From Bryobacterales bacterium (lineage in GTDB: Bacteria > Acidobacteriota > Terriglobia > Bryobacterales > Bryobacteraceae), in the NCBI GenBank assembly GCA_020847975.1, contig JADLBD010000180.1, positions 1 to 64,000 of the forward strand: a stretch of DNA of 64,000 nucleotides. The letters run 5' to 3'. Positions 3,647-62,195 of the stretch are shown here, one piece after another (the first letter of the stretch is position 1; each line of letters starts with the position of its first letter). The notes under the pieces were generated by a model that saw only the letters and a list, made by a program, of their open reading frames with translations, had not been told where the DNA came from and did no database searches. A program made the translations under genes and the position numbers.

Positions 3647-3649
3647 ACC

Positions 3650-7414: not shown

Positions 7415-7543
7415 TGTTTTTCCTCCCTTCGATTCTGTCTTCTATCTCTCTACACCCGAAATGACGGGCGCCTGAATGCAGCGGTTTCAGATATCGAAGA
7501 GCGCAAAGTAAAGATTTGTGAAGAGATGGGAGTCAGAGGAAAA

Positions 7544-12729: not shown

Positions 12730-12741
12730 AAGGCGGACGTC

Positions 12742-34977: not shown

Positions 34978-36084
34978 GTGACGCCAATGACGCTAAGAAA
35001 AGCGATGAATGCGATGTTCCTGTTCATGATGTGCGGCGCTGCCGCCGCGCAACCACAGGGGCGTGTGCTGGGGTTGGTGACTGCCGTCTCGGCCGGCGGG
35101 GACATTACGGTACAGGCGGACGCGGGCGGAACCTACGCCGCGAAGGCGCTGGAAGGAGCCAAGATATACCGCGTCGAGCCGGGGGAAAAAGATCTCTCCA
35201 AGGCGACAAAGGGGACGCTTACCGATATCGCCGCCGGTGACCGCATTCTGATCCGCGGCGAGGTGAACGCGGCTGAGAAGATCGTGCTCGCCAGTTCGCT
35301 GATTGTGATGAAGAAGGAAGCCATAACCAGCCTCCAGGCGAAAGAAGAAGCGGATTGGAAGCAGCACAGCGTGGCAGGGGTGATCAAGAGCGTGGATGCG
35401 GAGGGGAAGCAGTTCCGCATGAGCGCTCGCTCGGCCGGTGTGGTGAAGGAATGGACGGTAGCGGTGACGGACAAGACCGGCATCAAGCGGTACGCCGATG
35501 AGTCCATTCGCTACCAGGACGCGCAGCCGAGCGGCTTGAAGGCGATGGTGGCGGGCGACCAGGTGCGCGTAATGGGGAACCGCCAGGATGCGGAATTGAA
35601 GGTGACGGCCGAACAGATTGTCTTTGGCAGCTTCCAGACTCTCGGCGGGGAAATTGTTTCGCTGAAGCCGGAGACCGGCGACGTAGTGCTGCTCGATGTG
35701 CAGACGAAAAAGAAAGTGGCGTTGAAGATTTCGCCGGAAGCCCGATTGCGCAGGATGCCGGCGTTTGGCGGCCGGCCCGGCGGGATGCGTCCGGGCGGCG
35801 GGCCTCCCGGCGGCATGCGGCCAGGAGGTGGCGGCGGTTTCGGTATGCGCGCGGGCGGCGGAAACGGGCCGGATTTCCAACAGATGATGGAGCGCCTGCC
35901 GAAAGCCACGCTCGGGGATCTGAAGGCCGGGGACGCGGTGGTGACTTCGGTGGCGCGGCCCAAGGACGGGCATCCGGCCAACGTGATTTCGATGATCGCG
36001 GGAATGGATTTTCTGCTGCGGGCGCCTGCTTCGGAAGTCAACCAGGTGATCGGCAACTGGAACATGGAAGTTGGAACTCCGTAA
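34978..36084 (+). CDS. DUF5666-like exported protein with Gly/Met/Arg-rich linker
   Basis: This 368-residue protein has a signal peptide (to about residue 24, MFLFMMCGAAAAQ). Three OB-like beta modules follow, each with phrases such as GRVLGLVTAVS, DRILIRGEV, VAGVIKSVDAEGKQF and GGEIVSLKPETGDVVL, as in DUF5666 repeats. Residues about 258-300 form a low-complexity linker of GGRPGGMRPGGG units. The start is GTG; the ATG three codons in is an alternative. The gene ends 16 bases before a TonB receptor start, implying co-expression; the receptor has a similar Gly-rich insert. The function is unknown and probably envelope-associated. Confidence 0.75.
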   Translation: MTPMTLRKAMNAMFLFMMCGAAAAQPQGRVLGLVTAVSAGGDITVQADAGGTYAAKALEGAKIYRVEPGEKDLSKATKGTLTDIAAGDRILIRGEVNAAEKIVLASSLIVMKKEAITSLQAKEEADWKQHSVAGVIKSVDAEGKQFRMSARSAGVVKEWTVAVTDKTGIKRYADESIRYQDAQPSGLKAMVAGDQVRVMGNRQDAELKVTAEQIVFGSFQTLGGEIVSLKPETGDVVLLDVQTKKKVALKISPEARLRRMPAFGGRPGGMRPGGGPPGGMRPGGGGGFGMRAGGGNGPDFQQMMERLPKATLGDLKAGDAVVTSVARPKDGHPANVISMIAGMDFLLRAPASEVNQVIGNWNMEVGTP

Positions 36085-36100
36085 AGGGTTTGACACACAT

Positions 36101-39070
36101 ATGAATTGCTGGATTTCCCTAGTGGCGGGATTATTGTCAGTTGCCGGGCTGCATGCCCAGCAAATGGGACAGATCAAGGGTACGGTAGTGGACCCTTCGG
36201 CGGCATCCGTGCCGGGAGCAACGGTGAACGCGAAGGGACCGGGCACGAACCGCACGGTGACCACCAATGAAATGGGCGTCTACGAGCTCGACAATCTTCC
36301 TCCGGGCAAGTACAGCATCCGCATCAGCGCACCCGGATTTACGCCGTTTGAAATCCGCAATGCGCGGGTGAACATGGGAAGCCCGGTGGAGTTCAAGGTG
36401 CAACTGTCGATCGCCTCGCAGACGGAATCGGTGACAGTAGCGGATCAGGAGGCGGTTTCGGTGGATCCGCAGAGCACGGCGGGAGCGGTGGTGCTGAAGG
36501 GGGAGGACCTCAATGTGCTTTCCGACGATCCGGACGACCTTGCGTCGGATCTGCAAGCGCTCGCCGGACCGGCGGCGGGGCCGAACGGCGGGGAGATTTT
36601 CGTGGACGGGTTCAGCGGCGGGCAACTGCCTCCGAAATCGGCGATACGCGAAGTGCGCATCAACCAGAATCCGTTTTCCGCCGAATACGACAAGATGGGG
36701 TTCGGGCGTATCGAGATTCTGACGAAACCGGGCACGGACAAACTGCGGGGGCAGGCATTTCTCAGTTTCGGCGATCAGTATCTCAACTCGAGGAATCCCT
36801 TTTCTCCCACGCGCGCCCCTTACAAAGCTCTCAATTACGGAGTCGAGTTGGGGGGCCCGATCAGCAAGAAGGCTTCGTATTTTCTCGATGTCGAGCGCCG
36901 CGGGATCGATGAGAACGCCGTGGTCAACGCAACCATCCTCGATCCGAACCTCCAGCAGAATCTGCTCCAGCAGGCGATCGTGACGCCGATCCGGCGGCTG
37001 TCGGTTTCGCCGCGCATCGACTACCAATTGAGCACCAACAATACGCTTGTGGCGCGGTACCACTTCAGCCGGATGGAGGAGGACAACCAGGGGATCGGCC
37101 AGTTCACGCTGCCTTCGCGCGCGTTGAACATGGATAACAATAACCACACTTTCCAACTGACGGAAACCGCGGTGCTGAACGCGAAGATGATCAACGAGAC
37201 GCGGTTTCAGTACATGCATATGGACACGCGCCAGATGGGCGACAACACGACGCCGGCAATCAACGTGCTCGAGTCGTTCAACTCGGGAGGCGCCCTGATC
37301 GGCAATTCCGGCTCAACGCAGAATCACTTCGAGATCACCAACATGACCTCCATTACCCAGGGAACGCACTTCCTGAAATTCGGAGGACGCGCGCGGGTGG
37401 TTTCGGTGAATGACTCCTCGGACAGCAATTTCAACGGCACCTTTACGTTCGCCGGCGGGCTGGCGCCTGCGCTCGATGCCAATAACCAGGTGGTTCTCGG
37501 CTCCGACGGACAGCCCGTGTTGGAGCAGATCACGTCCATTGACCGCTACCAGCGCACGCTGCTGTTCCAATCGATGAACTTGCCGTTTGCGCAGATCCGG
37601 CAGTTGGGCGGCGGCCCCAGCCAGTTTACGTTGACCAGCGGGCTGGCTAAGTCGGGGGTGAATCAGACCGATGTCGGCGTTTTCGCCGAGGATTCCTGGC
37701 GCCTGCGGCCGCGGTTTACGTTGAACTACGGATTGCGCTACGAGACGCAGACGAATATTCATAACTACAACAACATTGCTCCGCGGTTGAGCGTCGCTTG
37801 GGGGCTCGATGGCGGCAAGAACGGCAAGACGACGAAGACGGTGCTGCGCACGGGGTTCGGCATGTTTTATGACCGCATTGACGACAGCCTCACTCTCCAG
37901 GCGCTGCGCTTCAACGGCACGACGCAGCAGCAGTATTTCGTGCCGAATCCCAGCTTCTACCCGAATATCCCCGCGCTCGGCTCCATTGCGAACTTCAGGC
38001 TGGATAACACGGTGCGGCGTTTGGCGCCGGATATCCGCGCGCCCTATATCGCGCAGGGCGTGATCGGAGTGGACCGGCAGTTGCCATGGAGGACATCTCT
38101 ATCGGCGAACTTCATCTACTCGCGGGGCGAACACATGCTGCGCACGGCGAACATCAACACTCCTCTTCCGGATGGCACACGGCCTTTGGGGAACATCGGC
38201 AACCTCTACCAGTTCGAATCGAACGGAATTCTGCGGCAGAAGCAGTTCATGGTGAATCTGCGGTCCCAGTTCAACCGCCATGTGATGCTGTTTGGATTCT
38301 ACGTGTATGGGCACGCCAATAGCGATACGGACGGCGTGGGGACATTTCCCGCGAATCCCTACAATTTCGCGACAGAGTATGGCCGCGCCTCCTATGATGT
38401 GCGCCACCGTTTTGTGATGGGCGGAAACATTCGCGGAAAGTGGGGCATGAGTTTGAACCCGTTCATCATCGCCAGCAGCGGCCCGCCGTTCAACATAACC
38501 ACAGGCCGTGACAACAATGGCGATACGACCTTCAATGACCGTCCGTCGCTGGCGGCGCCCGGCGCTACCGGGGCGGACATCATCGCCACTCAATTTGGAG
38601 CTTTCAACATCGCTCCCGGCCCGGGCGCGGTGCTGATCCCGCGCAACTACGGCGACGGTCCGGGGAACTTCAGCGTCAACCTGCGGCTGAGCAAGACGTG
38701 GGGATTCGGAGATCGAGGCGAACAGGCAGCGCAGGCAGCGCCGTCTGGACCGGATCGTCCTCCCGTGATGGTGGGTGGACCGGGAGGCCCCGGCGGGCAC
38801 GGCGGATACCATGGCGGGGGCGGATACCGCGGCGGTGGAAGATCGGGCGGGGTGTTCGGCGCGGCGAACTCGGAAAAGCGCTTCAACCTGACGCTTTCGG
38901 CCTCGGCGCGGAACCTCTTCAACCACGTGAATCTGGGACTGCCTGTGGGAAACCTGAGTTCTCCGCTGTTCGGCGAGTCGACGTCGATCGCAGGCGGATT
39001 TGGGCCCGGCGGCGCAATGGCCGGAGCGGGGAACCGGCGATTGGAATTGCAACTGCGGCTTTCGTTCTGA
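36101..39070 (+). CDS. Oar-like TonB-dependent receptor with Gly-rich insert
   Basis: This 989-residue outer-membrane protein has a signal peptide (to about residue 20), a carboxypeptidase-regulatory-like (CarboxypepD_reg) domain (about 24-105, GQIKGTVVDPSAASVPGATV), a plug-like region, then a long beta-barrel rich in YLNSRNPF- and FVMGG-type strands ending in the C-terminal Phe (LELQLRLSF). Near the C-terminus (about 885-925) a GGPGGPGGHGGYHGGGG-type disordered insert interrupts the barrel. Oar-like receptors import large or bulky substrates, often glycans or peptides. No partner SusD gene is present. Confidence 0.9.
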   Translation: MNCWISLVAGLLSVAGLHAQQMGQIKGTVVDPSAASVPGATVNAKGPGTNRTVTTNEMGVYELDNLPPGKYSIRISAPGFTPFEIRNARVNMGSPVEFKVQLSIASQTESVTVADQEAVSVDPQSTAGAVVLKGEDLNVLSDDPDDLASDLQALAGPAAGPNGGEIFVDGFSGGQLPPKSAIREVRINQNPFSAEYDKMGFGRIEILTKPGTDKLRGQAFLSFGDQYLNSRNPFSPTRAPYKALNYGVELGGPISKKASYFLDVERRGIDENAVVNATILDPNLQQNLLQQAIVTPIRRLSVSPRIDYQLSTNNTLVARYHFSRMEEDNQGIGQFTLPSRALNMDNNNHTFQLTETAVLNAKMINETRFQYMHMDTRQMGDNTTPAINVLESFNSGGALIGNSGSTQNHFEITNMTSITQGTHFLKFGGRARVVSVNDSSDSNFNGTFTFAGGLAPALDANNQVVLGSDGQPVLEQITSIDRYQRTLLFQSMNLPFAQIRQLGGGPSQFTLTSGLAKSGVNQTDVGVFAEDSWRLRPRFTLNYGLRYETQTNIHNYNNIAPRLSVAWGLDGGKNGKTTKTVLRTGFGMFYDRIDDSLTLQALRFNGTTQQQYFVPNPSFYPNIPALGSIANFRLDNTVRRLAPDIRAPYIAQGVIGVDRQLPWRTSLSANFIYSRGEHMLRTANINTPLPDGTRPLGNIGNLYQFESNGILRQKQFMVNLRSQFNRHVMLFGFYVYGHANSDTDGVGTFPANPYNFATEYGRASYDVRHRFVMGGNIRGKWGMSLNPFIIASSGPPFNITTGRDNNGDTTFNDRPSLAAPGATGADIIATQFGAFNIAPGPGAVLIPRNYGDGPGNFSVNLRLSKTWGFGDRGEQAAQAAPSGPDRPPVMVGGPGGPGGHGGYHGGGGYRGGGRSGGVFGAANSEKRFNLTLSASARNLFNHVNLGLPVGNLSSPLFGESTSIAGGFGPGGAMAGAGNRRLELQLRLSF

Positions 39071-39137
39071 TTCGGATAATCATCGATTATTCATACGCGA
39101 GGCGTATACTGGAGTGATCACCTTCAGGAGGAGCGCC

Positions 39138-42077
39138 ATGCAGAAAGTTCCGCTCGCATTGCTGTTCTTGTTTTCTCTTGTCCCATGCGTCTTCGCTCAA
39201 TCGGAAGTCGGAGGAGCAACACTGAATGGCGCGGTCACTGATCCATCGGGCGCCGCCGTGGCGGGCGCCAAAGTAACCATCAGGAGTCCCGCTATCGGTT
39301 TTACGCGCGCCATGGAATCGACCACAGCCGGCCTGTTTAGCTTCAGCAGGCTGCCGGTGGGAAGCTTCGATCTCTCCGTGGAGATGCAGGGCTTCAAGAC
39401 CGCGGTGCGCCAGGGCATCGTTCTCAATGTGGGAGCAGTGGCCACGCTCGACATCAGCCTGGAACTGGGGACGGCGACAGAAACCGTCTCCGTCACTTCT
39501 GAACTCCCGGTTGTCGAGGTGACGCGCACCGCCTCGACCGCAACGGTCAACACTCGCGCCATTGCTGATCTTCCGGTGAACGGCCGCAACTTCCTCGACT
39601 TCACGACGCTGACTCCCGGTGTGGTGCGCGATCCCACGCGCGGCGGCGATCTTGCCTTCGGCGGTCAGCGCGGCCCGAACAATTCGCTGCTGGTGGATGG
39701 AGCCGATTCCAATAACCTGTTCTACGGACAGGCTACCGGCCGGACGGGATTCCGGCCGTACGCCTTCAGCCAGGAAGCGGTGCAGGAGTTTCAGGTGAAC
39801 ACAAACTCCTTTCCTCCGGAAATCGGGCGCGCCAGCGGCGGGGCCATCAACGTGATCACCAAGTCGGGCACGAACGAATATCACGGTTCGGTGTTCGAGT
39901 ATTACCGCGACAAAGGGATGAACGCCAATACGTTCGTCAATAATCGCGTAGGCGCGCGCAAGAACCCATACCACTTCAACCAGTTCGGAGGCACGCTCGG
40001 CGGGCGCATCATCAGGGACAAGCTCTTCTTCTTTTTCAGTTATGACGGGCAGCGCAACGCGCAGACGCAGATTGTGACCCCGGTGATTCCCCCTCCGGCA
40101 TCCGCTCTCAATGTCTTCGGAAAGTACCTCACGCCTTATCAGATCGGGCTGAACAACAATGTGGGCCTGGTGAAAGTGGACTGGAACGCGACGGACCGCG
40201 ACCGGCTGAGTGTGCGCTACAACATGAGCCGCTATACGGGCGTGAACCAGGAATCCTTCGGCACAAACGTCGCCGAGGAACACTCGGGCAACAACGAAGT
40301 GAATACGGACAACGTCGCCGCGGTTTACACCCGCCTGTTGGGCGCCGACAAAGTGCTGGAAGTACGCTTCAACTCGGTTCAGGACAAGCAGCCGGGTTAC
40401 GCCAATACCACCGGTCCGGAGGTGAGCATCATCAATGGAATTGTTTTTGGCGCGAACAACTTCAGCCCTCGTTATACGAACAGCTATGCTTACCAGCCCA
40501 CGGCGAGCCTCAGTTATGTGCGTGGCCGCCACGCATACAAGATGGGGTTCGATTTCAACTTCGTTCGCGTGGAGAACTACTTCCCTGGATTCTTCGCCGG
40601 AGGCTACACCTACTCGAGTTACGACGCCTTCCTCAACGGCCAGCCCAGCAGTTTCCGGCAGTCATTTCCCGGGACGGGGACGGGTTTCCCCATCAGCCAC
40701 CCGGATGTGAACGAATGGGCTTTCTATGTGCAGGATGCCTGGCGCGTCACAGACAGGCTTACCTTGAACTACGGCATTCGCTACGACTATTTCGGTTACC
40801 GGCAACCCACAACGCTCAATAACAACGCCGCTCTGGTGGCGGCGAATCTGTTGACGAACCGCATTGCCACGGACGCCGCCAATATCGGCCCCAGGTTCGG
40901 GTTCGCCTACAAGGTGACGACGAGTGACGCCGTGGTCGTGCGAGGGGGATACGGAATTTATTACGCCCGCACCCCGGGGCTGTTGTTGAGCACGGCGATC
41001 TTGAACAACGGCATCGAATCGCAGCAGTATGAAATTCGCGCCAATCTTCCCACCTACCCGAACATACTCTCCGCCCCGCCCGGACCCGGGAATCCGCCGG
41101 ACATCTATGTTACCGATGGGAATTACAAGACTCCGCGGACGCAGCAGTTCAGCCTGCAAACCGAATTCGCCCTGGGCTCGAAGAGCAGCGTCACCATCGG
41201 CTATCTGGGAGTGAACGGCACTCATCTGACACGGACTCGAGACATCAACCTTTACCCCTCGATCGCTGCCAACGGCTATATTTGTCCAACCTCGGCGGCC
41301 TGCACGGCCCAGACAGGTTCGCCGGTAACCTACTACCGGCATTCTGGAGCTTCCGGCCCGGCGCGGCCCAATCCGGCTTTCGGCCGCATCTCCCTGTTCG
41401 ACAGCGGCGGCAACTCTCTCTATCACGGCGGATTCGTATCCTTCAACCGGCGCTTTGCAAATAACTTCCAGGTGATGAGTTCCTATACGCTGTCGAAGGT
41501 GATCGACACGACGCCGGACGGGACATCGGTGGTGCCGGGCAACGGCGGAGACGACGCGAAAGTTGCGCAGGACACGCTGCTGCCGAACCTGGATCGCGGC
41601 CCGGGCGTAGCGGATATCCGGCACCGGTTTATTCTTTCCGGAGTATTTGACATGGATTACGCCAAATCGCTCGGAAACCCTCTCCTGCGCGCAATCTTGA
41701 GCAACTGGCAGCTTGGCATGATCACCCAGGCCCAGTCCGGGCGCCGCTTCCAGGACATCGCGAGCGGCGACCCCGGCAACGACGGGAATAACTTCAATGA
41801 CCGCAGCCCGGCCGTGGGCCGCAACACGCTCGAGGGCCCCTGGTTCGTCGCCGTGGACGCGCGCTTGAGCAAGGATATTCCCGTCCTGAAGGAACGTCTG
41901 CGCGTGCGCCTGCTGGGCGAGGCGTTCAACCTCACCAACCGTGCCAATTTCAACGGCATTCAGACAACCCGCTACACCTTTAGCGGCGGATTCTTCCGGC
42001 CCACCACCAACTTCCTGTTCCGGCAGACGAATTTCGATCCGCGGATCATGCAGTTGGCAGTGAAGATCATTTTCTGA
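39138..42077 (+). CDS. Oar-like TonB-dependent receptor
   Basis: This 979-residue receptor has the signal peptide MQKVPLALLFLFSLVPCVFA, a carboxypeptidase-regulatory-like domain (ATLNGAVTDPSGAAVAGAKV) and a clear plug (VEVTRTASTATVNTRAIADL, PVNGRNFLDFTTLTPGVVRD, AINVITKSGTNEYHGSVFEYYR), then a barrel ending QLAVKIIF. It has a strong AGGAGG Shine-Dalgarno. It follows the first receptor by 67 bases and is its paralogue but lacks the Gly-rich insert. A TATACT at 39105-39110 could be a -10 for separate expression. Confidence 0.92.
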   Translation: MQKVPLALLFLFSLVPCVFAQSEVGGATLNGAVTDPSGAAVAGAKVTIRSPAIGFTRAMESTTAGLFSFSRLPVGSFDLSVEMQGFKTAVRQGIVLNVGAVATLDISLELGTATETVSVTSELPVVEVTRTASTATVNTRAIADLPVNGRNFLDFTTLTPGVVRDPTRGGDLAFGGQRGPNNSLLVDGADSNNLFYGQATGRTGFRPYAFSQEAVQEFQVNTNSFPPEIGRASGGAINVITKSGTNEYHGSVFEYYRDKGMNANTFVNNRVGARKNPYHFNQFGGTLGGRIIRDKLFFFFSYDGQRNAQTQIVTPVIPPPASALNVFGKYLTPYQIGLNNNVGLVKVDWNATDRDRLSVRYNMSRYTGVNQESFGTNVAEEHSGNNEVNTDNVAAVYTRLLGADKVLEVRFNSVQDKQPGYANTTGPEVSIINGIVFGANNFSPRYTNSYAYQPTASLSYVRGRHAYKMGFDFNFVRVENYFPGFFAGGYTYSSYDAFLNGQPSSFRQSFPGTGTGFPISHPDVNEWAFYVQDAWRVTDRLTLNYGIRYDYFGYRQPTTLNNNAALVAANLLTNRIATDAANIGPRFGFAYKVTTSDAVVVRGGYGIYYARTPGLLLSTAILNNGIESQQYEIRANLPTYPNILSAPPGPGNPPDIYVTDGNYKTPRTQQFSLQTEFALGSKSSVTIGYLGVNGTHLTRTRDINLYPSIAANGYICPTSAACTAQTGSPVTYYRHSGASGPARPNPAFGRISLFDSGGNSLYHGGFVSFNRRFANNFQVMSSYTLSKVIDTTPDGTSVVPGNGGDDAKVAQDTLLPNLDRGPGVADIRHRFILSGVFDMDYAKSLGNPLLRAILSNWQLGMITQAQSGRRFQDIASGDPGNDGNNFNDRSPAVGRNTLEGPWFVAVDARLSKDIPVLKERLRVRLLGEAFNLTNRANFNGIQTTRYTFSGGFFRPTTNFLFRQTNFDPRIMQLAVKIIF

Positions 42078-42175
42078 GCGCGCTTGGAATAAATGAGGCC
42101 CGCGTCCGCGCCATTCTGGCTTCCACCTCCTGACTCCCTCGTCTCCCATATCCCGCAAGCCGAAGCCTTGGCCCG

Positions 42176-44755
42176 TCAGGCCTTTCCCCGCAGGCGCGCG
42201 GTGAGTCCTCTGATCTGCACGGGTTTGCCCTTGTCGGGAATGAGCCGCACCGTGTACCGGCCTTGGTGGAAGACTCCTGGGGCGAATCGCCTTCCCGCGA
42301 TGCGCACCGTGTAGACGATTTCGCGGTTTGATTCGTCCACTACCTGCGCCACCATGTCATCCGTGGGGGCGGTAACTGGTTCCAGTTCATAACGCGCCTG
42401 GTGGATGCCGTTGTCGAATTGATGGATGACAATCGGCCAGCCGGGATAGGGCTGCGTGCCGGGCTTTGTGGCATCCACATGCCGGGGCCAGTTGGCCAGA
42501 GTGATGCGGCGCGTGGCCCGCTCCACTTCCACGATGCCGTAGCCTACGGAGCGGTCAAACAACTCGCCGGGTTTCCATCCGTACTGTTGCGGGTTCGCTA
42601 CCGCGTGAACTGTGATCCTGTTGCCGAACCCGTCCAGGTACTCGCCGCAGTAGCGTGGGGCGCCTTCCGGGCGGTTCGCGCCGGGCGTTGGAGGGAACCA
42701 GCGGCGCGGAAAAATGTTGCTGATGGCCGGAGTGCAAAGCATGTACGGCCCATCGTTGAATTCGTCAATGCCGTACCTCACGGTGGAAGCGAGGTGCTGA
42801 TCGCCTCCTATGTGGAAGGCAAGCGCCTTGCGCATGGCGCGCACCCCGCGCGTGCGCGGAGTTTGCGGCCAGCCGTTCGAATCGTGGTCGCACACCAATA
42901 CCTCGCCTTCGGCATACTCGCCGGGTTTGAGGATCGGCAGTTTTCCCGTCACGGCGTCCGTGTTAGCCGGCGGAGGCAGCGTGCACAGGTTCGCCCACAA
43001 GGTCTGCGAAACGAGAATTTTCAAGAACGCGCCGCGCCAATCCTGGGCCCAGTGATCGAGAAATCTCATTTGCCGCTCGCCGAGCAGTTCCGCTCCGGGA
43101 ACATCACCGTCTTTGGCGCCGTTGTATTTCGGATTCTGGGCCCAACCGTTGCGGATATCCGCCCAGGGGATGGCGTTGCGCGGAGACGATTTCCACTTCC
43201 GGTCCTCGATGATGGCGAAGCTGACGCCGCCGTAGAGAAGGGAGGTGTAGTAAACGCTGATGTTCTGGAGAACGGGCGTAGGGTCGAAGGGATCGGGCAG
43301 GTGGCTGGTTTGCGTCCGCTGCACCACGTTCACCCATTCCGCCGGCATCTTGTAGCCGCCGGAGTCCTGCCAGGCGTCGGTGCGGTCCACCATGGACTCC
43401 AGGTCCTTGGGATCGACCACCGCCTTCTTGCCGCCCGATCCCCAGACGTTGCCATGATACACGTCGTGGTCGTCCGGCATGCACACGGTTGGGATTTCGC
43501 GCATCAGATCGCCGAAACTCCAGCCGAAGAGGAACCACTTGCGAAGGTAATCGTGCGTAGCCTGTTCGAGGGGGGCGAGTTGATTGCCGAAGCCTCCGAC
43601 CCCCTCGTAAATCTGGTCTCCCGTGAAGAGCAGGATATCTGGCTGAAAGTGTCGCAGGTTGCTCACGATATCCTGGTGCGGGAAGCCGGCGTCATTGCAG
43701 CAGGTGAGCGCGCCGACGGTGAGCTTTTCTTTCGCCGGATCCTTGCGGATCACGCCGTCGAAAGTGTGTTCCACCTCCTCACCGGCCTCGTTCCGGCAGG
43801 TGAAGGAGATGCGGTAGGGCGTGTCGCGAGTGTCGTCCCAACCGGCGGCCCGGAACGTGGCAGTGCAGGCCGCGGGATGCAGCGGGGATCGCGCAATGGT
43901 ACGCCACACGGCGCCGGTTTTTGTCTGGAGCAGCGCTTCGTGCCTGCCGGGTTCGAGCGGAGGGAATTGCACTGTGAGCTTGAGCACTCTCCGGCTGAGC
44001 GTGTGCATCGCAAACAGGATGGGGCCGAAGGAGCGGTCACTGTGCTGCGTTACTTTGCTTCCCTTCAAACTCCAGTCCTGAAACCAGAACCGCATGTTGC
44101 CGCCGCGCTGGGTTCCGGTTGCCTGCGCGCTGCACACCAGCGCGACTCCGCCTTCAATCCAGGTGTTCGGCGCGCCGGAACGTTTCACTTCAGCCAGTTT
44201 CCTTCCCTCTTTGTCCAGCACTTGAAGGGAAAGGTCATACCTGGCGGGGCTTGCCGGGGTGGCGGAAAGCCTCAGTTCGAGTTCCTGCCGCGTGAGCGGC
44301 GCCTTGGGCGCGCCTGGCTCTATGTCATGGATGAACACGGAACCATCGGCGGCAATCCCCGAGTCAATGCCGCGGCCGTGAACCGCTGTGTCGCGGTAGT
44401 CGTGAAAACGGCCGCGCACGCCGGTCCGAAAACCCACGAAGCCCTTGGCCAGCGGCTGGCTGTCTTCCTCCATCCGGCCGAACTGAACGGTCATCGTGAA
44501 ATCGCCGGTTAGTTTGCTCACTTCGCGGGTCAGCAGAGAAACATTCCGGCCGCCGCCGGAGACCCAGCACTCCATTCTTCCATTTCGGACACGCCAGTCC
44601 TGAAAAGGATTGGCCCAATAATCCGCGCCGAGCCAGGGGCGGGTGAGGGTGGCGGGATAGTGCGCCTGGAAGTCGGCGGCATGGATGGCCGCGGCGGCGG
44701 TAGCGGTGACAAAACCGCGGCGCGAGAGGCGTGTGGTGGCCATGATGTTCAGCAT
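42176..44755 (-). CDS. Exported PhoD-like phosphodiesterase/alkaline phosphatase
   Basis: This large 859-residue protein has a twin-arginine signal (TTRLSRRGFVTATAAAAIHA). Residues about 30-230 look like a laminin/concanavalin-type beta-sandwich, and the catalytic PhoD_2-like domain contains TGDQIYEG, MPDDHDVYHGN, EDRKWK and HIGGDQHL, which provide metal ligands as in calcium/iron-dependent PhoD phosphatases. The C-terminal strip is beta-rich. The ATG at 44743 (MATTRLSRR) is an equally good start. It is expected to act in the periplasm. It faces the reb cluster across a 177-base spacer. Confidence 0.85.
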   Translation of the reverse strand: MLNIMATTRLSRRGFVTATAAAAIHAADFQAHYPATLTRPWLGADYWANPFQDWRVRNGRMECWVSGGGRNVSLLTREVSKLTGDFTMTVQFGRMEEDSQPLAKGFVGFRTGVRGRFHDYRDTAVHGRGIDSGIAADGSVFIHDIEPGAPKAPLTRQELELRLSATPASPARYDLSLQVLDKEGRKLAEVKRSGAPNTWIEGGVALVCSAQATGTQRGGNMRFWFQDWSLKGSKVTQHSDRSFGPILFAMHTLSRRVLKLTVQFPPLEPGRHEALLQTKTGAVWRTIARSPLHPAACTATFRAAGWDDTRDTPYRISFTCRNEAGEEVEHTFDGVIRKDPAKEKLTVGALTCCNDAGFPHQDIVSNLRHFQPDILLFTGDQIYEGVGGFGNQLAPLEQATHDYLRKWFLFGWSFGDLMREIPTVCMPDDHDVYHGNVWGSGGKKAVVDPKDLESMVDRTDAWQDSGGYKMPAEWVNVVQRTQTSHLPDPFDPTPVLQNISVYYTSLLYGGVSFAIIEDRKWKSSPRNAIPWADIRNGWAQNPKYNGAKDGDVPGAELLGERQMRFLDHWAQDWRGAFLKILVSQTLWANLCTLPPPANTDAVTGKLPILKPGEYAEGEVLVCDHDSNGWPQTPRTRGVRAMRKALAFHIGGDQHLASTVRYGIDEFNDGPYMLCTPAISNIFPRRWFPPTPGANRPEGAPRYCGEYLDGFGNRITVHAVANPQQYGWKPGELFDRSVGYGIVEVERATRRITLANWPRHVDATKPGTQPYPGWPIVIHQFDNGIHQARYELEPVTAPTDDMVAQVVDESNREIVYTVRIAGRRFAPGVFHQGRYTVRLIPDKGKPVQIRGLTARLRGKA

Positions 44756-44876
44756 ATCGGAGGTGGGATGGGGGAGGGGTCCCGGCGCGTCCTCGAACGG
44801 AGACCCGCCGGCTACTTTTCCGTATCGAATTCAAATTGAGAAAAAAAAGACTTTATCATCAAATAAGAAAAATTTG

Positions 44877-44905
44877 TTGACTCTCCGGCAGAACCGTGAT
44901 AAAAA
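44877..44905 (+). promoter_or_regulatory. Sigma70-type promoter of the reb (R-body) cluster
   Basis: TTGACT (44877-44882, five of six to consensus), a 17-base spacer, and an extended -10 TGA-TAAAAA (44897-44905) sit 28 bases before the first reb start. The region 44830-44880 is strikingly A/T-rich (A8 run, AAATAAGAAAAATTT) in a GC-rich genome, like an UP element. This is the best-looking promoter in the window. Confidence 0.65.
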
Positions 44906-44932
44906 TGCTGAAGACTGGGGGCTCAATAACTT

Positions 44933-45172
44933 ATGGCATTTCCAACTGCGGTGAACAGTCAAATCACCGATGCGGTGACGCAATCGAACGTAAAAGTTCT
45001 GGGGGACGCGCCGGCGGTGGCCGTGGGAAACCTTTACATGGCCATGGCGCAGGCGATGTCCACCGCCGCCCAGAACGCGGTTACAGCGCAACAGCAGAGC
45101 AACATCCTGGCTCAAGCCGTCACCACCCGCTGCGTCGAAACCTTGGTGGGCAGCGCGGGAGACAGCAAATAG
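44933..45172 (+). CDS. rebB: RebB-family R-body structural protein 1
   Basis: This 79-residue protein of the RebB ('killing trait') family makes up R-bodies, the coiled, extendable protein ribbons of Caedibacter. It begins MAFPTAVNSQITDAVTQSNV and continues with the Ala/Gln-rich helix LYMAMAQAMSTAAQNAVTAQ, the family hallmark. It lacks a signal peptide and assembles in the cytoplasm. It is first in a tight four-gene unit behind a strong promoter and is nearly identical in its first 30 residues to the third gene, pointing to tandem duplication. Confidence 0.85.
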   Translation: MAFPTAVNSQITDAVTQSNVKVLGDAPAVAVGNLYMAMAQAMSTAAQNAVTAQQQSNILAQAVTTRCVETLVGSAGDSK

Positions 45173-45181
45173 CGGGCGGCT

Positions 45182-45367
45182 ATGCCGGAAGATACTCCCC
45201 AACCGGAACCAGCGGAAGCGCCAGCGGGGGAATCCGCAAAAGCGCCTGACAGCGCGCATCTGGCGTCTTATGAAGCGGCAAAAAATGCGGCCGAAGCGGC
45301 GGAGGCGGCGGTTGCCGCGGCTGTTCAGGCCATGAGTCAACAACAGCAGCCCGGAAAGGACAAGTGA
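45182..45367 (+). CDS. Small acidic Ala/Pro/Glu-rich protein in the reb cluster
   Basis: The 61 residues comprise a Pro/Glu/Ala-rich first third (PEDTPQPEPAEAPAGES), then a helical Ala-rich stretch (YEAAKNAAEAAEAAVAAAVQ) and a Gln4 run. No domain is recognised. It starts 9 bases after rebB-1 and ends 4 bases before the next reb gene, so it is almost certainly translated. By position it may be the equivalent of the small accessory Reb proteins of other R-body loci (assembly or extension modifier), but no homology to them can be shown by eye. Confidence 0.65.
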   Translation: MPEDTPQPEPAEAPAGESAKAPDSAHLASYEAAKNAAEAAEAAVAAAVQAMSQQQQPGKDK

Positions 45368-45371
45368 ACCA

Positions 45372-45614
45372 GTGGCATTTCCCACCTCAGTCAATGATCA
45401 GATCACCGATGCGGTGACACAGTCGAACGTCAAGGTGCTGAGCGATGCGCCGGCCCAGGCGATGGGAAGCCTGTACCAGGCTTGCGCACAGGCTTTGGCA
45501 ACCGCGGCGCAAAACGCCGTCAGCGCCCAGCAGCAGGCCAACACGCTCGAGCAGGCAGTGACCACGGCTTGCGTGCAGGCGTTGACCCGCTCCGGAGCGG
45601 GAAGCGCGAAATGA
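45372..45614 (+). CDS. rebB: RebB-family R-body structural protein 2
   Basis: This 80-residue RebB-family protein starts at GTG with a clear paralogous match to the first gene: AFPTSVNDQITDAVTQSNVK, then LYQACAQALATAAQNAVSAQ. The central helix is the polymerising element of R-body proteins. One Cys occurs in that helix and one more in TACVQALTR. Its stop overlaps the next start codon (ATGA), giving translational coupling. Confidence 0.85.
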   Translation: MAFPTSVNDQITDAVTQSNVKVLSDAPAQAMGSLYQACAQALATAAQNAVSAQQQANTLEQAVTTACVQALTRSGAGSAK

Positions 45615-46009
45615 GCGGGCCGACAGCCCTCAACGACCAGATACAGGATGCCTTGGAACAGGTGAACGCCACGCTTGGCGGAAGCGGACGCAGCCTCCTC
45701 GAGGCGGCCGCTTACCAGGCGATGGCGCAAGCGCTTGCCCTCGGTTTACAGAACGCTGTCGCCCAGCAGCAGCATGCCTACATGCTGCGCAATGCGCTCA
45801 CCACCGCGGCTGCCCAAGCCATCCTCGAGGGGAAACGCGAGGAGGCCTCGGAGGTCTTGAAACTGGCCGAGTCAAAGCTGGTCAACCCGAGTTTGTCCGA
45901 TGCCCTCGCGGAGGTACACGCGGCGCTGCGCGCCTTGCGCGAGGAACTGAAAAGATCCGGGGAGCCCGTCAGTTCGGACTCTTCAGCCACTTCAGCGGAA
46001 ACCGGGTGA
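45611..46009 (+). CDS. Long RebB-family protein with coiled-coil tail
   Basis: This 132-residue protein has an N-terminal RebB-like part (TALNDQIQDALEQVNATLGG, then YQAMAQALALGLQNAVAQQQ) and a 55-residue charged helical extension (EEASEVLKLAESKLVNPSLS and ALREELKRSGEP) that its shorter paralogues lack. The extra tail could cap, tether or regulate the ribbon. It overlaps the previous gene by four bases and ends 41 bases inside the convergent sialidase gene, so the reb transcript must read into antisense sialidase sequence. Confidence 0.8.
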   Translation: MSGPTALNDQIQDALEQVNATLGGSGRSLLEAAAYQAMAQALALGLQNAVAQQQHAYMLRNALTTAAAQAILEGKREEASEVLKLAESKLVNPSLSDALAEVHAALRALREELKRSGEPVSSDSSATSAETG

Positions 46010-47060
46010 AGGTGATCACCTCGTAGGGCGACTTCCCGCCGCGTTCGTAGAGCAGGCCGATTTCGCCGTCCTTCAATTCGGTGAGGTTCGAATACGCGCT
46101 TGGCCCTGAGTAGATCGCCTTGGACGCGCTCCAGGTTTTCCCTTGATCGGTGGAAACACGCACCGTCATGTTTTCGCGCTTCGTGCTCGCCGGATTGGAG
46201 AACAAAAGCTCGGTGTTCTTCCCCTTTCCCGCCCGCAGCAGGCTCGCCTGGCAGACCGGTTCGATCAGCGCCTCGTCAGGAACCGGTTCGGAAAATGTGA
46301 TGCCGGCATCGCGGCTGATCGAGACGTAGCGGCGGTTGCGCCCATGATAGCTGCGCATGTTGAGCAGCAATGACCCATCCGGCAGTTCCGCAATGGTGGA
46401 TTCGTTGCACATCGGCCCGGCGCTTCCTCCGAGTTTCCAGGTCTTGCCATGGTCGTCGCTGTAGACCACGTGGCTGTAGCGCTCGGTCTCGTCGCCGCGG
46501 TTGTGGTCGCAGGCGATGACCATGCGCCCGGAGCGCAATTGAATGCCGTTTCCCGGCCCTGTGGCATACCACGTCCACTCGGGCTTCTTCACTTCGCGGG
46601 TAATCTCATCGGGCTTTGCCCAGGTGAGGCCGTCATCCGTGCTGTGGGTCGCCCACACCGTGCGCGTGCCGCGCTTGTTGCCGCTGAGGATATCCTTCTC
46701 CGTGACAACACCGGGATTGCGGGTCAGCAAAAGCCAGATGTAGCCGGTGGACCGGTCCATCACAGGCGCCGGATTCCCGACGGTGTCCGTGCCGAAGTCC
46801 GCGATCGTGATGGCGGAAGACCACGTCCTGCCGCCGTCCGTGCTGCGCTTCAGCAGCACGTCGATGTTGCCGGAATCGGACCGGCTGTCGCGCCGCCCTT
46901 CGCAAAACGCGAGCAGGGTCCCTTTGGCGGAAACAAGCAGTGCCGGAATGCGATAGGCGAAATATCCGTCCACTCCGCCGCGAAACACGTCGATCTGCGC
47001 CGGCGGTGCGGCGAAAGCGGCGAAAGCAGCGAGTGAGAGCGTCACTGGAGCCAGGATCAT
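45969..47060 (-). CDS. Exported sialidase (exo-alpha-sialidase, GH33-like)
   Basis: This 363-residue six-bladed propeller enzyme has a signal peptide (to about residue 18), the FRIP-type arginine motif YRIP (Arg37), and four Asp-boxes of the S-x-D-x-G-x-x-W type (STDGGRTW at 73-80, STDDGLTW, SDDHGKTW, STDQGKTW). LLYERGG carries a candidate nucleophile region. It is likely to release terminal sialic acids from host or environmental glycans outside the cell. The gene converges with the reb cluster and overlaps its last gene by 41 bases. Confidence 0.88.
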   Translation of the reverse strand: MILAPVTLSLAAFAAFAAPPAQIDVFRGGVDGYFAYRIPALLVSAKGTLLAFCEGRRDSRSDSGNIDVLLKRSTDGGRTWSSAITIADFGTDTVGNPAPVMDRSTGYIWLLLTRNPGVVTEKDILSGNKRGTRTVWATHSTDDGLTWAKPDEITREVKKPEWTWYATGPGNGIQLRSGRMVIACDHNRGDETERYSHVVYSDDHGKTWKLGGSAGPMCNESTIAELPDGSLLLNMRSYHGRNRRYVSISRDAGITFSEPVPDEALIEPVCQASLLRAGKGKNTELLFSNPASTKRENMTVRVSTDQGKTWSASKAIYSGPSAYSNLTELKDGEIGLLYERGGKSPYEVITFTRFPLKWLKSPN

Positions 47061-47084
47061 ACGAGTGATCCAAGTATATAGCGC

Positions 47085-49187
47085 TCACTTTATGATGCGA
47101 AACAGATTGCTGTAGTTGTCCGTCCAGAGCCGCACGCCGGGTTTGGTTCCCGGCGGAGCGAAATTGCGCAAGGCGGGTTTGTCGAACACTGCTTTGCTCG
47201 AGGCCAGCAGCACCATGTCTGTGCCGAAGTAGCCGAGGTCATCGTCGCCGGGGTCGCTCACAAAGATGCCGGCTTTGTGGAGAGCTTCGCCTGCGCGCGC
47301 AATCACAGGCTCCAGATTCAGGTAGCGGTTCGAGATGTGGATCACCAGAATGCCATCCGGCTTCAAATGACGGAAGTACAGTTGGAAGGCCTCGAGTGTC
47401 AGCAGGTGCACGGGAACGGAGTCGCTCGAGAACGCATCCATGTGGAGGACATCGAAGTTCTGGGGCGGCTCGCTTTCGAGCGAAAGCCGCGCGTCACCCA
47501 GCACGATATCGAGTTTGGCGGGACAATCCTGAATGAAGGTGAACTCCTTCTTCGCCACGTCAATCACCAGTGGGTTGATCTCGTAAATGCGGTAGTAGTC
47601 GCCAGGACGCGCGTAGGTGAGCATCACGCCCGCGCCGAGACCGGTAATGCCGATGCGCTGCGGACGGTCGCGGTGCGTCGAAACGATCGCGCGCGCGACG
47701 CCGGTGTTCGGGCCGAAGTAACTGGTCGATTCCCGATGGCGCAGCGGGTTCAGATACTGTTCACCATGATTGATGAGCCCGTGGGTCAGCTTGCGCGTCC
47801 AATCCACTTCATCCGGACTGCCGTAGTCCGCCGTGCGCAAGCCGCCATAAAAATTGCGCGCCACCACGCGGTAGGAACGGACCGTCAACCGCGCCTGCTG
47901 CGCCAGTACCAGGGCCAGGGCCAAGGTTGCGGCGCCGCCGGCGATCCAGCCCCAGCGATACGGCAAACGGTGAAGCGGGCTCGACGGGTCGCCATAGTGG
48001 ACCACAAGGACCAGAACGGCGCATGCCACGAGGGCGATCGGGAGTTCGTAGTATTGCGAGAAGAAATAGGGGCCGATAACTCCCGTGAACACGCCGCCCA
48101 GCGCGCCTCCGGCCGAGATCATGAGATAGAACGCCGTGAGGTAGCGCGGATGCGGTTTGAGCGTCGCCACCTCCCCGTGGCAGGTCATACAGCAGATGAA
48201 TAATGAAGCCGCGAACAGCCCGGCTTTGGGCAGCGCATGCATCTGCGATTCCGAGGTCAACGCATACGCCATGGCGGCAAGCGCCGCCGCGGTGAGCGGC
48301 AGATAGAGCCTGCGGTTGTACCAGCCCTTGCTGTCGAAGGTAAGAATGAAGCTCAGCAGATACAGGCTGAGGGGGAGAACCCAGAGGAAGGGGATGGGAG
48401 CGACATCCTGCGTGAGATGAGTGGTGACGCCCAGCAGCAGTGTCGAGGCGCACGCCGCCAAGCCGGTCCAGAGCAGCCATAACTTCACGCCGGGCGCCTC
48501 GGCGGGAGGTTCGGCGTACTCCGCCTGGGATATCGCTTCCGTCAGATTCCGGCTGCGCCACACACAAGCCAGGCACAGCGCCGCGAAGAGGCAATAGGCG
48601 GCGCTCCAGAGATAGGCTTGACTGCGTGTGGCAAGGTAAGGCTCCACCAGCACCGGATAGCCGAGAAGCGCCAGCATCGACCCCACGTTCGACAAGGCGA
48701 ACAGGCGATAGGGGGAGGCCCCCGGGAAGGCTAGCGCATACCAGGATTGAATGAGCGGACCCGTGGTCGAGAGCAGAAAATAGGGCAGGCCCACGACGGC
48801 AACCAGCAGCGCCAGAATGCCGAGTGTCGGATTATCGCCGCCATGCGGCTTCCACGCATCGCCGGGAACGACAGGCAACACGAGCAGGCTGGCGGCGATG
48901 AGCGCCAAATGGATGGCTGCTTGCCCACGCGTGGCGAGACGGGAACTGATCGAGTGCGCATAGAGATACCCGCACAGCAGCGCGGTCTGGAAAAAGAGCA
49001 TGCATGTGGTCCACACCGCGGCCGACCCGCCGAACCAGGGCAGGATGATCTTCGCCAGAACCGGCTGCACCTGAAACAACAGAAAGGCGCTGGTGAAGAT
49101 GGTGACCGCGTAGAGGAGCATCCCCTGTGTGACCTGCTTCGGCGCGCTTGGCGCGGCCGTCGGGAGCGGCGCTGTCAAGGGTTCCAT
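47085..49187 (-). CDS. Fused membrane/spermidine-synthase-like protein
   Basis: The 700 residues comprise about 12 hydrophobic helices (40-455) followed by a soluble Rossmann methyltransferase-like domain (about 490-700) of the spermidine-synthase fold: GITGLGAGVMLTYARPGDYY, YEINPLVID, LGDARLSLE, HMDAFSSDSVPVHLLT. These fused proteins are widespread in Acidobacteria; most lack proven aminopropyltransferase activity. The ATG at 49187 gives MEPLTAPL; longer frames have no family support. It shares its 3' start region with the thiolase stump (13 bases of overlap). Confidence 0.85.
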   Translation of the reverse strand: MEPLTAPLPTAAPSAPKQVTQGMLLYAVTIFTSAFLLFQVQPVLAKIILPWFGGSAAVWTTCMLFFQTALLCGYLYAHSISSRLATRGQAAIHLALIAASLLVLPVVPGDAWKPHGGDNPTLGILALLVAVVGLPYFLLSTTGPLIQSWYALAFPGASPYRLFALSNVGSMLALLGYPVLVEPYLATRSQAYLWSAAYCLFAALCLACVWRSRNLTEAISQAEYAEPPAEAPGVKLWLLWTGLAACASTLLLGVTTHLTQDVAPIPFLWVLPLSLYLLSFILTFDSKGWYNRRLYLPLTAAALAAMAYALTSESQMHALPKAGLFAASLFICCMTCHGEVATLKPHPRYLTAFYLMISAGGALGGVFTGVIGPYFFSQYYELPIALVACAVLVLVVHYGDPSSPLHRLPYRWGWIAGGAATLALALVLAQQARLTVRSYRVVARNFYGGLRTADYGSPDEVDWTRKLTHGLINHGEQYLNPLRHRESTSYFGPNTGVARAIVSTHRDRPQRIGITGLGAGVMLTYARPGDYYRIYEINPLVIDVAKKEFTFIQDCPAKLDIVLGDARLSLESEPPQNFDVLHMDAFSSDSVPVHLLTLEAFQLYFRHLKPDGILVIHISNRYLNLEPVIARAGEALHKAGIFVSDPGDDDLGYFGTDMVLLASSKAVFDKPALRNFAPPGTKPGVRLWTDNYSNLFRIIK

Positions 49188-60250: not shown

Positions 60251-61618
60251 TCACCGGAAACAGTAGTTTTCGGGCGGCGGAAAGCTGCGAGTCTCTCCCG
60301 TGTCGATCTTGCGGATGTGAAGTCCGGCCAGGTCCACATAAGCCAGGGATGTTCCGTCGGGGGAGATGGATGCGCGGGGTGGGGGATCCTCAGGCGGATT
60401 GTTCGTCACCTGCCGGATCGTCAGTTCAGGCGGCGCGGACGGCTCGCCGAACCATCCGAGTTCCCAACCCGTAAGCGCGACCCCCAGCGGCAACAGTAGC
60501 GCCACGGCCGCCGCCGGCCACCGCCTGCGCCCCGGCGCGGGCTTCTGGAATCGCTCCAGGTCCGCCCGCAGTTCCGCGGCCGTCTGATACCGCAGGGCTC
60601 GGTCTCCCTCCAGCGCCTTCAGAATGACCCGTTCCAGCTTTGCCGGGATAGCGGAATTCCGAAGCCGCGGCGGAACGGGATTCCCGGCAAGGATCGCCTC
60701 CGCCGTTTGCGCCGGCGTGCCGCCCTCGAACGGCCGACTCCCCGTGGTCATTTGATACAGCACTACTCCCAGAGAGAAGAGGTCGCTCCTGGCATCCACA
60801 TTCTCTCCCCGCGCCTGCTCCGGCGACATGTAGCTTGCCGTCCCCATCGCCCGCCCCGGAATGGTTACCGTGGATTCGGATGCCGAAGTCGCGGAGCCCG
60901 CCGTTGCCTCGGAAACTGCATGCGGCTCAGACCGCAGCTTCGCCAACCCGAAATCCAGGATCTTCACCCGCCCCCGGGCCGTAATGAAAAGGTTCGCAGG
61001 CTTGATATCCCGGTGCACGATCCCCTTGGCGTGGGCGGCCTCCAGCGCTTCGCAGACTTGCGAGGCGATCGCAACCGCTTCATCCCCCGCCAGCGCGCCC
61101 CCTGCCAGCCGTTGCTTCAGCGATTCTCCTTCGATCAGTTCCATCACCAGGAACGGCTGCCCATCGTACTCGGCGACATCGTGCAGCGTGCAGATATTCG
61201 GATGGTTCAGCGCGGAGATCGCCCGCGCCTCCCTCCGGAACCTCTCGCGCGCATCCGGGGTATCGACATAGTCCGCCGGCAGAAATTTCAGCGCCACATC
61301 GCGCTCCAGCCGGGTATCGGTAGCCTGGTAGACCTCGCCCATGCCTCCGCGCCCGATCAGCGCGGCAATGCGGTAAGGGCCGATTTCCTGGCCTTCCGGG
61401 AATCTCGCCGCCGACGCTTCGCCGCCGAACAACTCCAGTACCGGAGCCGGCAGGAACTGTTCAACCCGCCCTTCGTATGCCAGCAGTGACTCCACTTCCC
61501 GGCGCAACCCCTCATCGCCGGCACAGGCCGCGTTCAGGAAGGCAGACCGGCGCGCCCCCTCGAGCGCCATCGCCCGCTCGACGATCTCCTCAACTCGCTG
61601 CCATTCAGACGGCTCCAT
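60251..61618 (-). CDS. Hanks-type Ser/Thr kinase with TM helix
   Basis: The 455 residues hold a kinase domain at about 83-345 with a complete active site: glycine loop GRGGMGEVY (89-97), Lys111, HRDIKPAN (202-209), DFGLAK (222-227) and an APE-like SPEQAR. A TM helix follows (about 380-400, [18 protein letters not shown]), then the first propeller blades, ending YCFR and TGA. Acidobacterial proteins of this type normally continue for about 500 more residues of propeller. The start is coupled to the sigma-factor stop (TGATATG). It is a likely membrane-embedded sensor kinase partner of the ECF factor. Confidence 0.9.
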
Positions 61619-61619
61619 A

Positions 61620-62195
61620 TCATGCCGCCGAATCCATCTGCCGCATCAGCCACATCCTCGCCAATCGCCAGTCCCGCGCCACGCTATCCGGCGAAATACT
61701 CAAGACCGCGGCCGTCTCCTCCACCGTCAACCCTCCGAAAAAACGCAACTCGACCACGCGGCACTTGCGCGGATCGATCCTGGCCAACTCCCGCAGCGCG
61801 TCATCAATAGCGGCCAAATCGGAAGCATGCTCCTCCGAAACCGCCAAAGCCTCATCGAGGGGGACATGGGGCGCCCCGCCGCCGCGCTTGACAGCATGCC
61901 GCGCCCGCGCATGATCCACCACGATCCCGCGGATGATCTCCGCGCACAAAGCGAAGAAGTGCGCGCGTCCGAGCCAATCCACCTTCTGGCTCCCCAACAG
62001 CCGGACATAAGCTTCCTGCACGAGCGAAGTAGTCGTCAAACTGGCATCCGCTTGACCCGTTCTCCTCAGCCGCTGCTTGGCAATCCGCCGCAAATCGCGT
62101 CCAATCAGGGGAACGAGTTGCTCGAGTGCGCCCCGGTCGCCTTGCCGCCAGTCCTGAAGCAACCGCGTGATGTCGTCTTGTGAAGCGGATTCCAT
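61620..62195 (-). CDS. ECF-subfamily RNA polymerase sigma factor
   Basis: This 191-residue sigma-70-type ECF factor of the acidobacterial TIGR02999-like group has region 2 with [11 protein letters not shown] and [22 protein letters not shown], and region 4 with [20 protein letters not shown] ending in the helix [14 protein letters not shown]. The ATG at 62195 is chosen; a TTG at 62222 would extend it. The stop and the kinase start are one base apart, so sigma factor and kinase are co-produced, as in many acidobacterial ECF/kinase operons. No separate anti-sigma factor is visible. Confidence 0.88.

What the first reader, a model, noticed from the sequence alone, without database searches (positions are those of the whole stretch)
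44877..46009. A compact R-body (reb) operon with its own promoter
Four genes in 1.08 kb, spaced 9, 4 and -4 bases apart: three RebB-family proteins (79, 80 and 132 residues) and an Ala/Pro/Glu-rich 61-residue protein. R-bodies are coiled protein ribbons that uncoil on an acid or other trigger and can rupture membranes; they are best known from Caedibacter, a killer endosymbiont of Paramecium. The promoter is unusually good for this window (TTGACT, 17 bases, extended -10) in an A/T-rich patch. The third RebB has a coiled-coil tail the others lack. A free-living soil-type bacterium with an R-body operon would be of interest for predator defence or contact killing. Family membership is seen; function is inferred.
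Basis: partly seen in the sequence, partly recalled or inferred. Interest (0 to 1): 0.85.

Follow-up and report, generated by a model that had tools for sequence, protein, structure and literature searches.

The report
Compact R-body operon in an acidobacterium
A bacterium of the phylum Acidobacteriota carries a small, intact set of genes for R-bodies, coiled protein ribbons that can spring open; such genes were already reported from this phylum, so this is a new, compact member of a known kind rather than a new system.

Summary
Window 44933-46009 carries four tightly packed genes: two canonical RebB proteins (Pfam PF11747, E 1.6e-27 and 1.8e-25), a longer divergent RebB (6.3e-10) and a 61-residue Ala/Pro/Glu-rich protein without a family. 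A congener at about 89% DNA identity (G009, Bryobacterales MAG SJ154) has the same four genes, promoter block and neighbours; the Reb genes are under purifying selection (dN/dS 0.00-0.15). The cluster is accessory: 2 of 12 genomes of the genus, 0 of 109 other relatives. G008, 97% identical to G009 in the flanks, lacks it through what reads as a clean 3.9-kb deletion. The two canonical Rebs form one clade, apart from the main Rebs of two other acidobacteria, which suggests separate gains in the phylum (inference). Partner proteins of 'group 1' clusters are absent from the genome, with positive controls. Most likely it makes an R-body, perhaps against grazing protists; ribbon, trigger and target are untested. 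A 2026 survey already reports Acidobacteriota with three or more reb genes (PMC13430693), and grazing defence was proposed in 2013 (PMC3583457). Real, but a new member of a known kind.

The parts
44859..44932 (+). Conserved leader with promoter-like TTGACT(44877-44882)-17-TGA-TAAAAA(44900-44905) and a GGGGG run before the first start codon
   Evidence: read; scan (2 sites against 0.5 expected in 3 kb); 64 of 74 columns identical in G009, 27 of 29 over 44877-44905
44933..45172 (+). reb1: canonical RebB protein, 79 aa
   Evidence: PF11747 E 1.6e-27; dN/dS about 0.10 against G009; QITD, NAV and QQQ motifs
45182..45367 (+). 61-aa protein: Pro/Glu-rich first half, Ala-rich (helical by inference) second half ending SQQQQPGKDK
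   Evidence: no Pfam or NCBIfam family; conserved in G009, 77% identical, dN/dS about 0.23; Reb-profile score not clearly above segment shuffles
45372..45614 (+). reb2: canonical RebB protein, 80 aa, GTG start
   Evidence: PF11747 E 1.8e-25; protein identical in G009, 9 base changes, all at third positions
45611..46009 (+). reb3: long divergent RebB protein, 132 aa, overlapping reb2 by 4 bases; about 58 residues after the Reb domain, charged and helical in a weak model; its last 41 bases overlap the convergent BNR gene
   Evidence: PF11747 E 6.3e-10, residues 11-72; 89% identical in G009, dN/dS about 0.15; model
42176..44755 (-). Divergent neighbour: PhoD-like phosphatase (context, not a required partner: internally deleted in G009)
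   Evidence: PF09423 E 4e-7; G009 lacks window 42815-44465
45969..47060 (-). Convergent neighbour: BNR-repeat (sialidase-like) protein; 12 of 12 genomes of the genus have a match, the closest at 90-91% identity in G008, G009 and G011
   Evidence: PF13088 E 2.4e-41

Best explanation
It is a complete, compact R-body operon. Shown: three Reb-family proteins and one conserved small protein, in one tight head-to-tail run behind a conserved promoter-like block, kept intact by selection in two species and missing, by a clean deletion on the best reading, from a third. Inferred: reb1 and reb2, a canonical pair that arose by duplication, are the two ribbon subunits (as RebA/RebB in Caedibacter and RebP1/RebP2 in Pseudomonas); reb3, translated from the overlapping ATGA, and the 61-aa protein act in assembly or as minor ribbon components (the places of RebC/RebD or RapA). 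The ribbon rolls up in the cytoplasm in some cells and unrolls when the cell is stressed or engulfed, breaking it and perhaps a grazer's vacuole. It is an accessory trait that is gained and lost.
For: Family matches. Conserved gene set, order, spacing and lengths in G009, with dN/dS of 0.04/0.36, 0.11/0.49, 0/0.17 and 0.06/0.42 for the four genes in order. Conserved leader. Residues N8, Q10, D13, N48 and A62 invariant and I11, T12, T16, Q17, N19, Q54, Q55 nearly so in 20 chosen Rebs from 8 sources. The neighbouring PhoD gene is broken in G009 while all four genes stay open. G000, G009 and G008 share both flanks; 66 of 80 informative sites in the right flank join G009 with G008 (10 and 4 for the other two pairings), support 100, G011 taken as outgroup because it is the most distant; the absence in G008 then reads as a deletion of about window 42076-45982. 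The two-subunit model follows PMC8322103 (passages) and PMC3583457 (passages).
Against: No ribbon has been seen and no transcript measured. The two carriers are the most contaminated of the 12 genomes of the genus (7% and 6%; 89% and 85% complete); 0 of 7 cleaner genomes of the genus have it. HP1.1- and HP1.2-like partner proteins of group 1 clusters are not in either carrier's genome, so the cluster may lack something needed. The models of reb1 and reb3 are of low confidence (mean pLDDT 59 and 49). Selection is measured from one pair of species only.
Confidence: 0.82

Rival explanations
1. The Reb proteins form a stable polymer or inclusion with a role other than membrane rupture or killing, such as a stress-related scaffold, so the R-body label is right in structure but wrong in function.
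For: The genome lacks HP1.1/HP1.2-like proteins, none of the four proteins matches a toxin family, and the habitat is unknown. R-bodies made in E. coli from the Caedibacter genes did not kill (PMC3583457, passage).
Against: In Azorhizobium and in P. aeruginosa PA14 reb genes go with harm to eukaryotic hosts (PMC5527310, abstract passages; PMC8322103, abstract). These are distant bacteria.
Confidence: 0.3
2. A decaying or cryptic remnant of a larger, horizontally gained reb cluster that no longer makes R-bodies.
For: Smaller than the clusters of Azospirillum and Eleftheria (6 annotated reb genes plus HP1.2- and HP1.1-like genes) and of G313 and G498 (6 and 5 Reb matches); absent from 10 of 12 genomes of the genus; missing in G008.
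Against: All four frames open in two species at about 89% identity; dN/dS far below 1; reb2 protein unchanged; leader conserved.
Confidence: 0.1
3. A bin or assembly artefact: proteobacterial reb genes joined to acidobacterial DNA.
For: Both carriers are draft genomes with 6-7% contamination, and G009 is a MAG.
Against: The same genes sit at the same place in two assemblies with 11% DNA difference, and the flanks on the window's contig align to G008 and G011 of the genus at 83-88%.
Confidence: 0.02

Closest known systems
reb clusters of Azospirillum argentinense Az39 plasmid p4 and Eleftheria terrae plasmid (group 1 type)
   Same: Canonical Rebs up to 69-70% identical to reb1; the run ends in a short Reb overlapping a long Reb, by 4 bases in Azospirillum and 1 in Eleftheria, as reb2/reb3 do by 4
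   Different: Six annotated reb genes, gaps of 29-124 bases before the last pair, HP1.2- and HP1.1-like genes downstream (my assignment by size, order and PMC3583457); the long Reb has a Pro- or Gly-rich tail, not a charged one
reb locus of Caedibacter taeniospiralis pKAP298 (rebA, rebB, rebC, rebD)
   Same: Two canonical Reb genes side by side plus a further Reb; reb1 54% identical over 65 residues to one of them
   Different: Plasmid-borne in a Paramecium endosymbiont; longer Rebs (105, 114 aa); RebC has no homologue elsewhere (PMC3583457)
reb cluster of Pseudomonas aeruginosa PA14 (rebP1, rebP2, rebD, rapA, rcgA, fecI2), group 2
   Same: Two main Reb subunits plus an accessory protein of the Pro/charge-rich group S4 (PMC8322103 section 6 and passages; PMC13430693)
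   Different: Carries its own regulators (sigma factor, transcription factor); none lies next to the window's cluster. Compared from papers only, no sequence fetched
   Same: Same phylum, same Pfam family
   Different: Six and five Reb matches in the cluster and an HP1.2-like gene; 9 of the 10 Rebs of the two in the tree form a separate clade, support 100/98
Acidobacteriota with three or more reb genes reported in PMC13430693
   Same: Same phylum and gene family
   Different: The acidobacterial species and gene orders are not named in the parts that I read (abstract, Results in full, part 1 of 2 of the Discussion, passages); supplements are capped at 0 here and were not tried, so the window's own lineage may be among them

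Membership tests
Reb proteins / R-body operon (PF11747) | Reb-domain proteins above the curated cut-off | tested here: met
   3 of the 4 proteins above 24 bits
Reb proteins / R-body operon (PF11747) | Signature motifs QITD flanked by Pro, KxxxD/E, NAV, QQQ | tested here: met
   All in reb1 and reb2 (QITD, KVLGD or KVLSD, NAV, QQQ; Pro at 4 and 26); reb3 has QIQD, NAV, QQQ and the first Pro but not KxxxD or the second Pro (read by eye; motifs from PMC13430693)
Reb proteins / R-body operon (PF11747) | Three or more reb genes clustered (the 2026 survey's criterion) | tested here: met
   Three in 1.08 kb
Reb proteins / R-body operon (PF11747) | Coiled, SDS-resistant ribbon that extends on a trigger | not testable with these tools
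   Needs expression and microscopy
Group 1 synteny (Raymann 2013) | HP1.1 and HP1.2 partner proteins | tested here: not met
   The Azospirillum HP1.2-like protein matches 3 of 5 (G313, G498, the Eleftheria plasmid) and not G000 or G009; the HP1.1-like protein matches 1 of 5 (Eleftheria) and none of the four acidobacteria. Own genome 89% complete, G009 85%
Group 2 synteny (Raymann 2013) | HP2 proteins, sigma factor and Crp-type regulator beside the reb genes | tested here: not met
   Six proteins of the Ruegeria pomeroyi reb region (sigma factor, a Crp fragment, four hypothetical) give no match in the window at E <= 1e-3. 33 of the window's 53 ORFs of 100+ aa were scanned with Pfam: one ECF sigma, 61620-62222, 15.6 kb away. 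Rest of the genome not searched for these
61-aa protein as a degenerate Reb | Reb-profile score above composition-matched shuffles | tested here: not met
   7.4 bits; 11 of 500 full and 80 of 500 segment shuffles score as high (G009: 4.8 bits, 10 and 73)

The most novel reading that the evidence does not exclude
The window holds a naturally minimal R-body machine: two near-twin subunits, one long Reb and one 61-residue Ala/Pro/Glu accessory protein that stands in for HP1.1/HP1.2, RebC and RapA, in about 1.1 kb and without linked regulators, in an acidobacterial lineage that gained it separately from other acidobacteria and can lose it cleanly. If so, the 61-aa protein is a new kind of R-body assembly factor.
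Probability: 0.2. Interest if true: 0.5.

Novelty: new member of a known kind. Interest (0 to 1): 0.3.

Why it matters
It adds a separately placed lineage of reb genes within Acidobacteriota, and a close pair of genomes with and without the cluster in which the cost and use of R-bodies could be compared. The compact unit is a handy candidate for asking which proteins suffice to build a ribbon. It does not overturn anything: reb genes in this phylum and the grazing-defence idea are in print.

Tried and rejected
Looked for a solved relative by sequence: none by reb1 alone (best E 0.84) or by a 20-row profile (best E 0.21). Structure prediction with the six sequences used gave low confidence (mean pLDDT 48.9 for reb3, 59.4 for reb1), so no fold search was run; reb1 comes out as helix 5-24, a break at the conserved Pro, then helix 27-75. 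Phage origin or carriage: reb1 has no match in 50,697 phage records and, in a search that finds close relatives only, none confirmed in viral contigs (13 pattern stretches, 0 relatives); plasmids gave 17 records, all of proteobacterial genera. A Reb ancestry of the 61-aa protein was tested and not supported. The divergent PhoD gene as an R-body partner was rejected because it is broken in G009 and has matches in 7 reb-free congeners. Foreign base composition was looked for and not found: GC of the three Reb genes 60-64% against 61.7% in the window, GC3 0.74-0.75 against 0.73-0.80 in five neighbours; only the 61-aa gene is lower in GC3, 0.55. A search outside the phylum by naming another centre was not possible.

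Rows dropped: the Reb tree used 55 of 58 Reb-profile hits; three with the shortest profile matches were left out. The tree rests on 80 columns; the join of reb1/reb2 with the Azospirillum group has support 87/83 only, and reb3 sits on a long branch without a sure place. The profile was built from 18 of the 20 rows of A2 (the two reb3 rows left out).

Full report
Observation. Genes one, three and four match RebB (PF11747) with E 1.6e-27, 1.8e-25 and 6.3e-10; the 61-aa second gene matches nothing in Pfam or NCBIfam. The genome, 8.67 Mb in 302 contigs and 89% complete, shows no other Reb gene. The promoter has the stated layout (TTGACT, 17 bases, TGA before TAAAAA; read), but the -10 hexamer is a middling fit and the tool scored an 18-base spacing.

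Conservation. In 121 genomes (own genome and 120 relatives) two carry PF11747: the own genome and G009 of the same genus, that is 2 of 12 in the genus and 0 of 109 others. G009's contig is identical to JADLBG010000015.1, a Bryobacterales MAG, isolate SJ154; Bryobacterales are Acidobacteriota. G009 has the same four ORFs with identical lengths. Protein identity is 93, 77, 100 and 89% in order (stop counted), and dN/dS is about 0.10, 0.23, 0 and 0.15. The leader 44859-44932 is identical at 64 of 74 columns and the promoter stretch 44877-44905 at 27 of 29, while 44700-44858 is at 85 of 160. So the cluster is a selected unit in at least two species, as far as one pair can show. A side remark: reb2 is low in synonymous change too (dS 0.17 against 0.36-0.49), which could mean a codon-level constraint or exchange; I did not follow it.

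Gain and loss. The flanks 36000-42075 and 45983-49182 align to G008 at 88%, with two bases between; G011 aligns up to 39070 and again from 45969, with five bases between. In the right flank G009 and G008 are 96.9% identical, each 89-90% to the window, and 66 of 80 informative sites join G009 with G008, support 100; the root on G011's side is assumed from its greater distance (84-86%). The absence in G008 is therefore best read as a deletion that took the PhoD gene and the whole reb cluster, from the last codons of the outer-membrane-barrel gene 39000-42077 to the end of the BNR gene, whose own last codons changed (read). An exchange with an empty allele is not excluded. G011's state may be the older empty site or another deletion; I cannot tell. 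In G009 the PhoD gene has lost window 42815-44465, yet the reb genes are open, so PhoD is a neighbour and not a partner. Base composition is that of the host, so any transfer is old or came from a donor of like composition.

Origin. In 396 genomes drawn evenly from the phylum, 5 have PF11747, the own genome among them. G313 and G498, of one family, have larger clusters (6 and 5 Reb matches; G313 has a further weak one on another contig) with an HP1.2-like gene; G484 has two divergent matches and G402 one. In a tree of 55 Reb domains, reb1 and reb2 of window and G009 form one clade (100/91) that joins Azospirillum, Eleftheria, Vibrio and Photobacterium Rebs (87/83), while 9 of the 10 Rebs of G313 and G498 form a separate clade (100/98). 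Separate gains within the phylum are the simplest reading, with the caution that 80 columns resolve little.

Partners. The Azospirillum proteins that I take for HP1.1 and HP1.2 (by size, order and the description in PMC3583457) were sought in the own genome without a match. Since an empty answer alone shows little, I repeated the search with controls: HP1.2 is found in G313, G498 and the Eleftheria plasmid but not in G000 or G009; HP1.1 is found in Eleftheria only, in none of the four acidobacteria. So the window's cluster is not of the full group 1 type; it also has no sigma or Crp gene beside it as group 2 clusters do.

How it likely works. In Caedibacter, RebA, RebB and RebC are enough for R-bodies in E. 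coli (PMC3583457, section read); in P. aeruginosa PA14, RebP1, RebP2 and RapA are found in the insoluble fraction and RebD is not (PMC8322103, passages). By analogy reb1 and reb2 are the ribbon subunits; reb3 and the 61-aa protein are assembly or accessory parts. The model of reb1, a short helix, a break at the conserved Pro and a long helix (mean pLDDT 59), agrees with the kinked helix that the 2026 survey describes, but is weak. The 61-aa protein is not demonstrably a Reb. Its Pro/charge-rich start recalls the group S4 description, and its Ala-rich half the Ala/Pro-rich proteins downstream in Azospirillum and Eleftheria (Azo_x, Elef_x); those two do score above all 500 full shuffles against the Reb profile, though I ran no segment shuffle on them. 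That likeness is a lead and not a test. Trigger and target are inference: type 51 R-bodies of Caedibacter unroll below pH 6.5, unrolling in the food vacuole is the held but unproven idea, and defence against grazers was proposed for free-living bacteria in 2013 (PMC3583457, passages).

What is known. PMC13430693 (abstract, Results in full, part 1 of 2 of the Discussion, passages) surveys Reb proteins and says that multiple species of Acidobacteriota have three or more reb genes. A search for R-bodies with Acidobacteria found 1 paper, a dinoflagellate study seen as a listing only; one for R-body terms with Bryobacter, Solibacter or Acidobacteriota held 371 papers, 10 listed, of which only PMC13430693 has both kinds of term. 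So the family, the phylum and the proposed use are known. What this window adds is an exact, compact gene set without the group 1 or group 2 partners, a close pair of genomes with and without it, and a Reb lineage separate from the other acidobacterial ones in this sample.

Verdict. Real, in use by its conservation, and a new member of a known kind.

Noticed in passing
window 42176-44755: PhoD-like phosphatase gene, intact here, with an internal deletion of about 1.65 kb in G009 and missing in G008 together with the reb cluster.
   Followed up: partly
L030 (G008) near 10284-10287; window 42075/45983: Clean 3.9-kb absence between two gene ends, read as a deletion; it changes the last codons of the BNR gene.
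   Followed up: yes
L031 (G011) near 10483-10489: A different, larger absence at the same place (window 39071-45968), ending at the BNR stop: a spot that has changed more than once.
   Followed up: partly
window 45372-45614 (reb2): reb2 has no amino-acid change and about half or less of the synonymous change of the other three genes against G009 (dS 0.17 against 0.36-0.49).
   Followed up: no
window 60251-62222: ECF sigma factor (PF07638) directly next to a Ser/Thr protein kinase gene, both on the minus strand; no link to reb shown.
   Followed up: no
L025 (G313) 5675-6960 and L026 (G498) 9227-10522: Two other acidobacteria share, by eye, a pair of similar hypothetical genes (290-293 and 115-126 aa) just upstream of their larger reb clusters, as if part of the unit.
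   Followed up: no
L025 (G313) 3358-3852 and L026 (G498) 12376-12873: Both of these clusters also have a match to the sigma factor of the Ruegeria reb region a few kb upstream (E 8e-10 and 1e-4); the window has none.
   Followed up: no
L027 (G484) 7211-8276: Three short genes in a row whose ends overlap by one base, the first two with divergent Reb domains and the first with an insertion between QITD and the rest of the domain.
   Followed up: no
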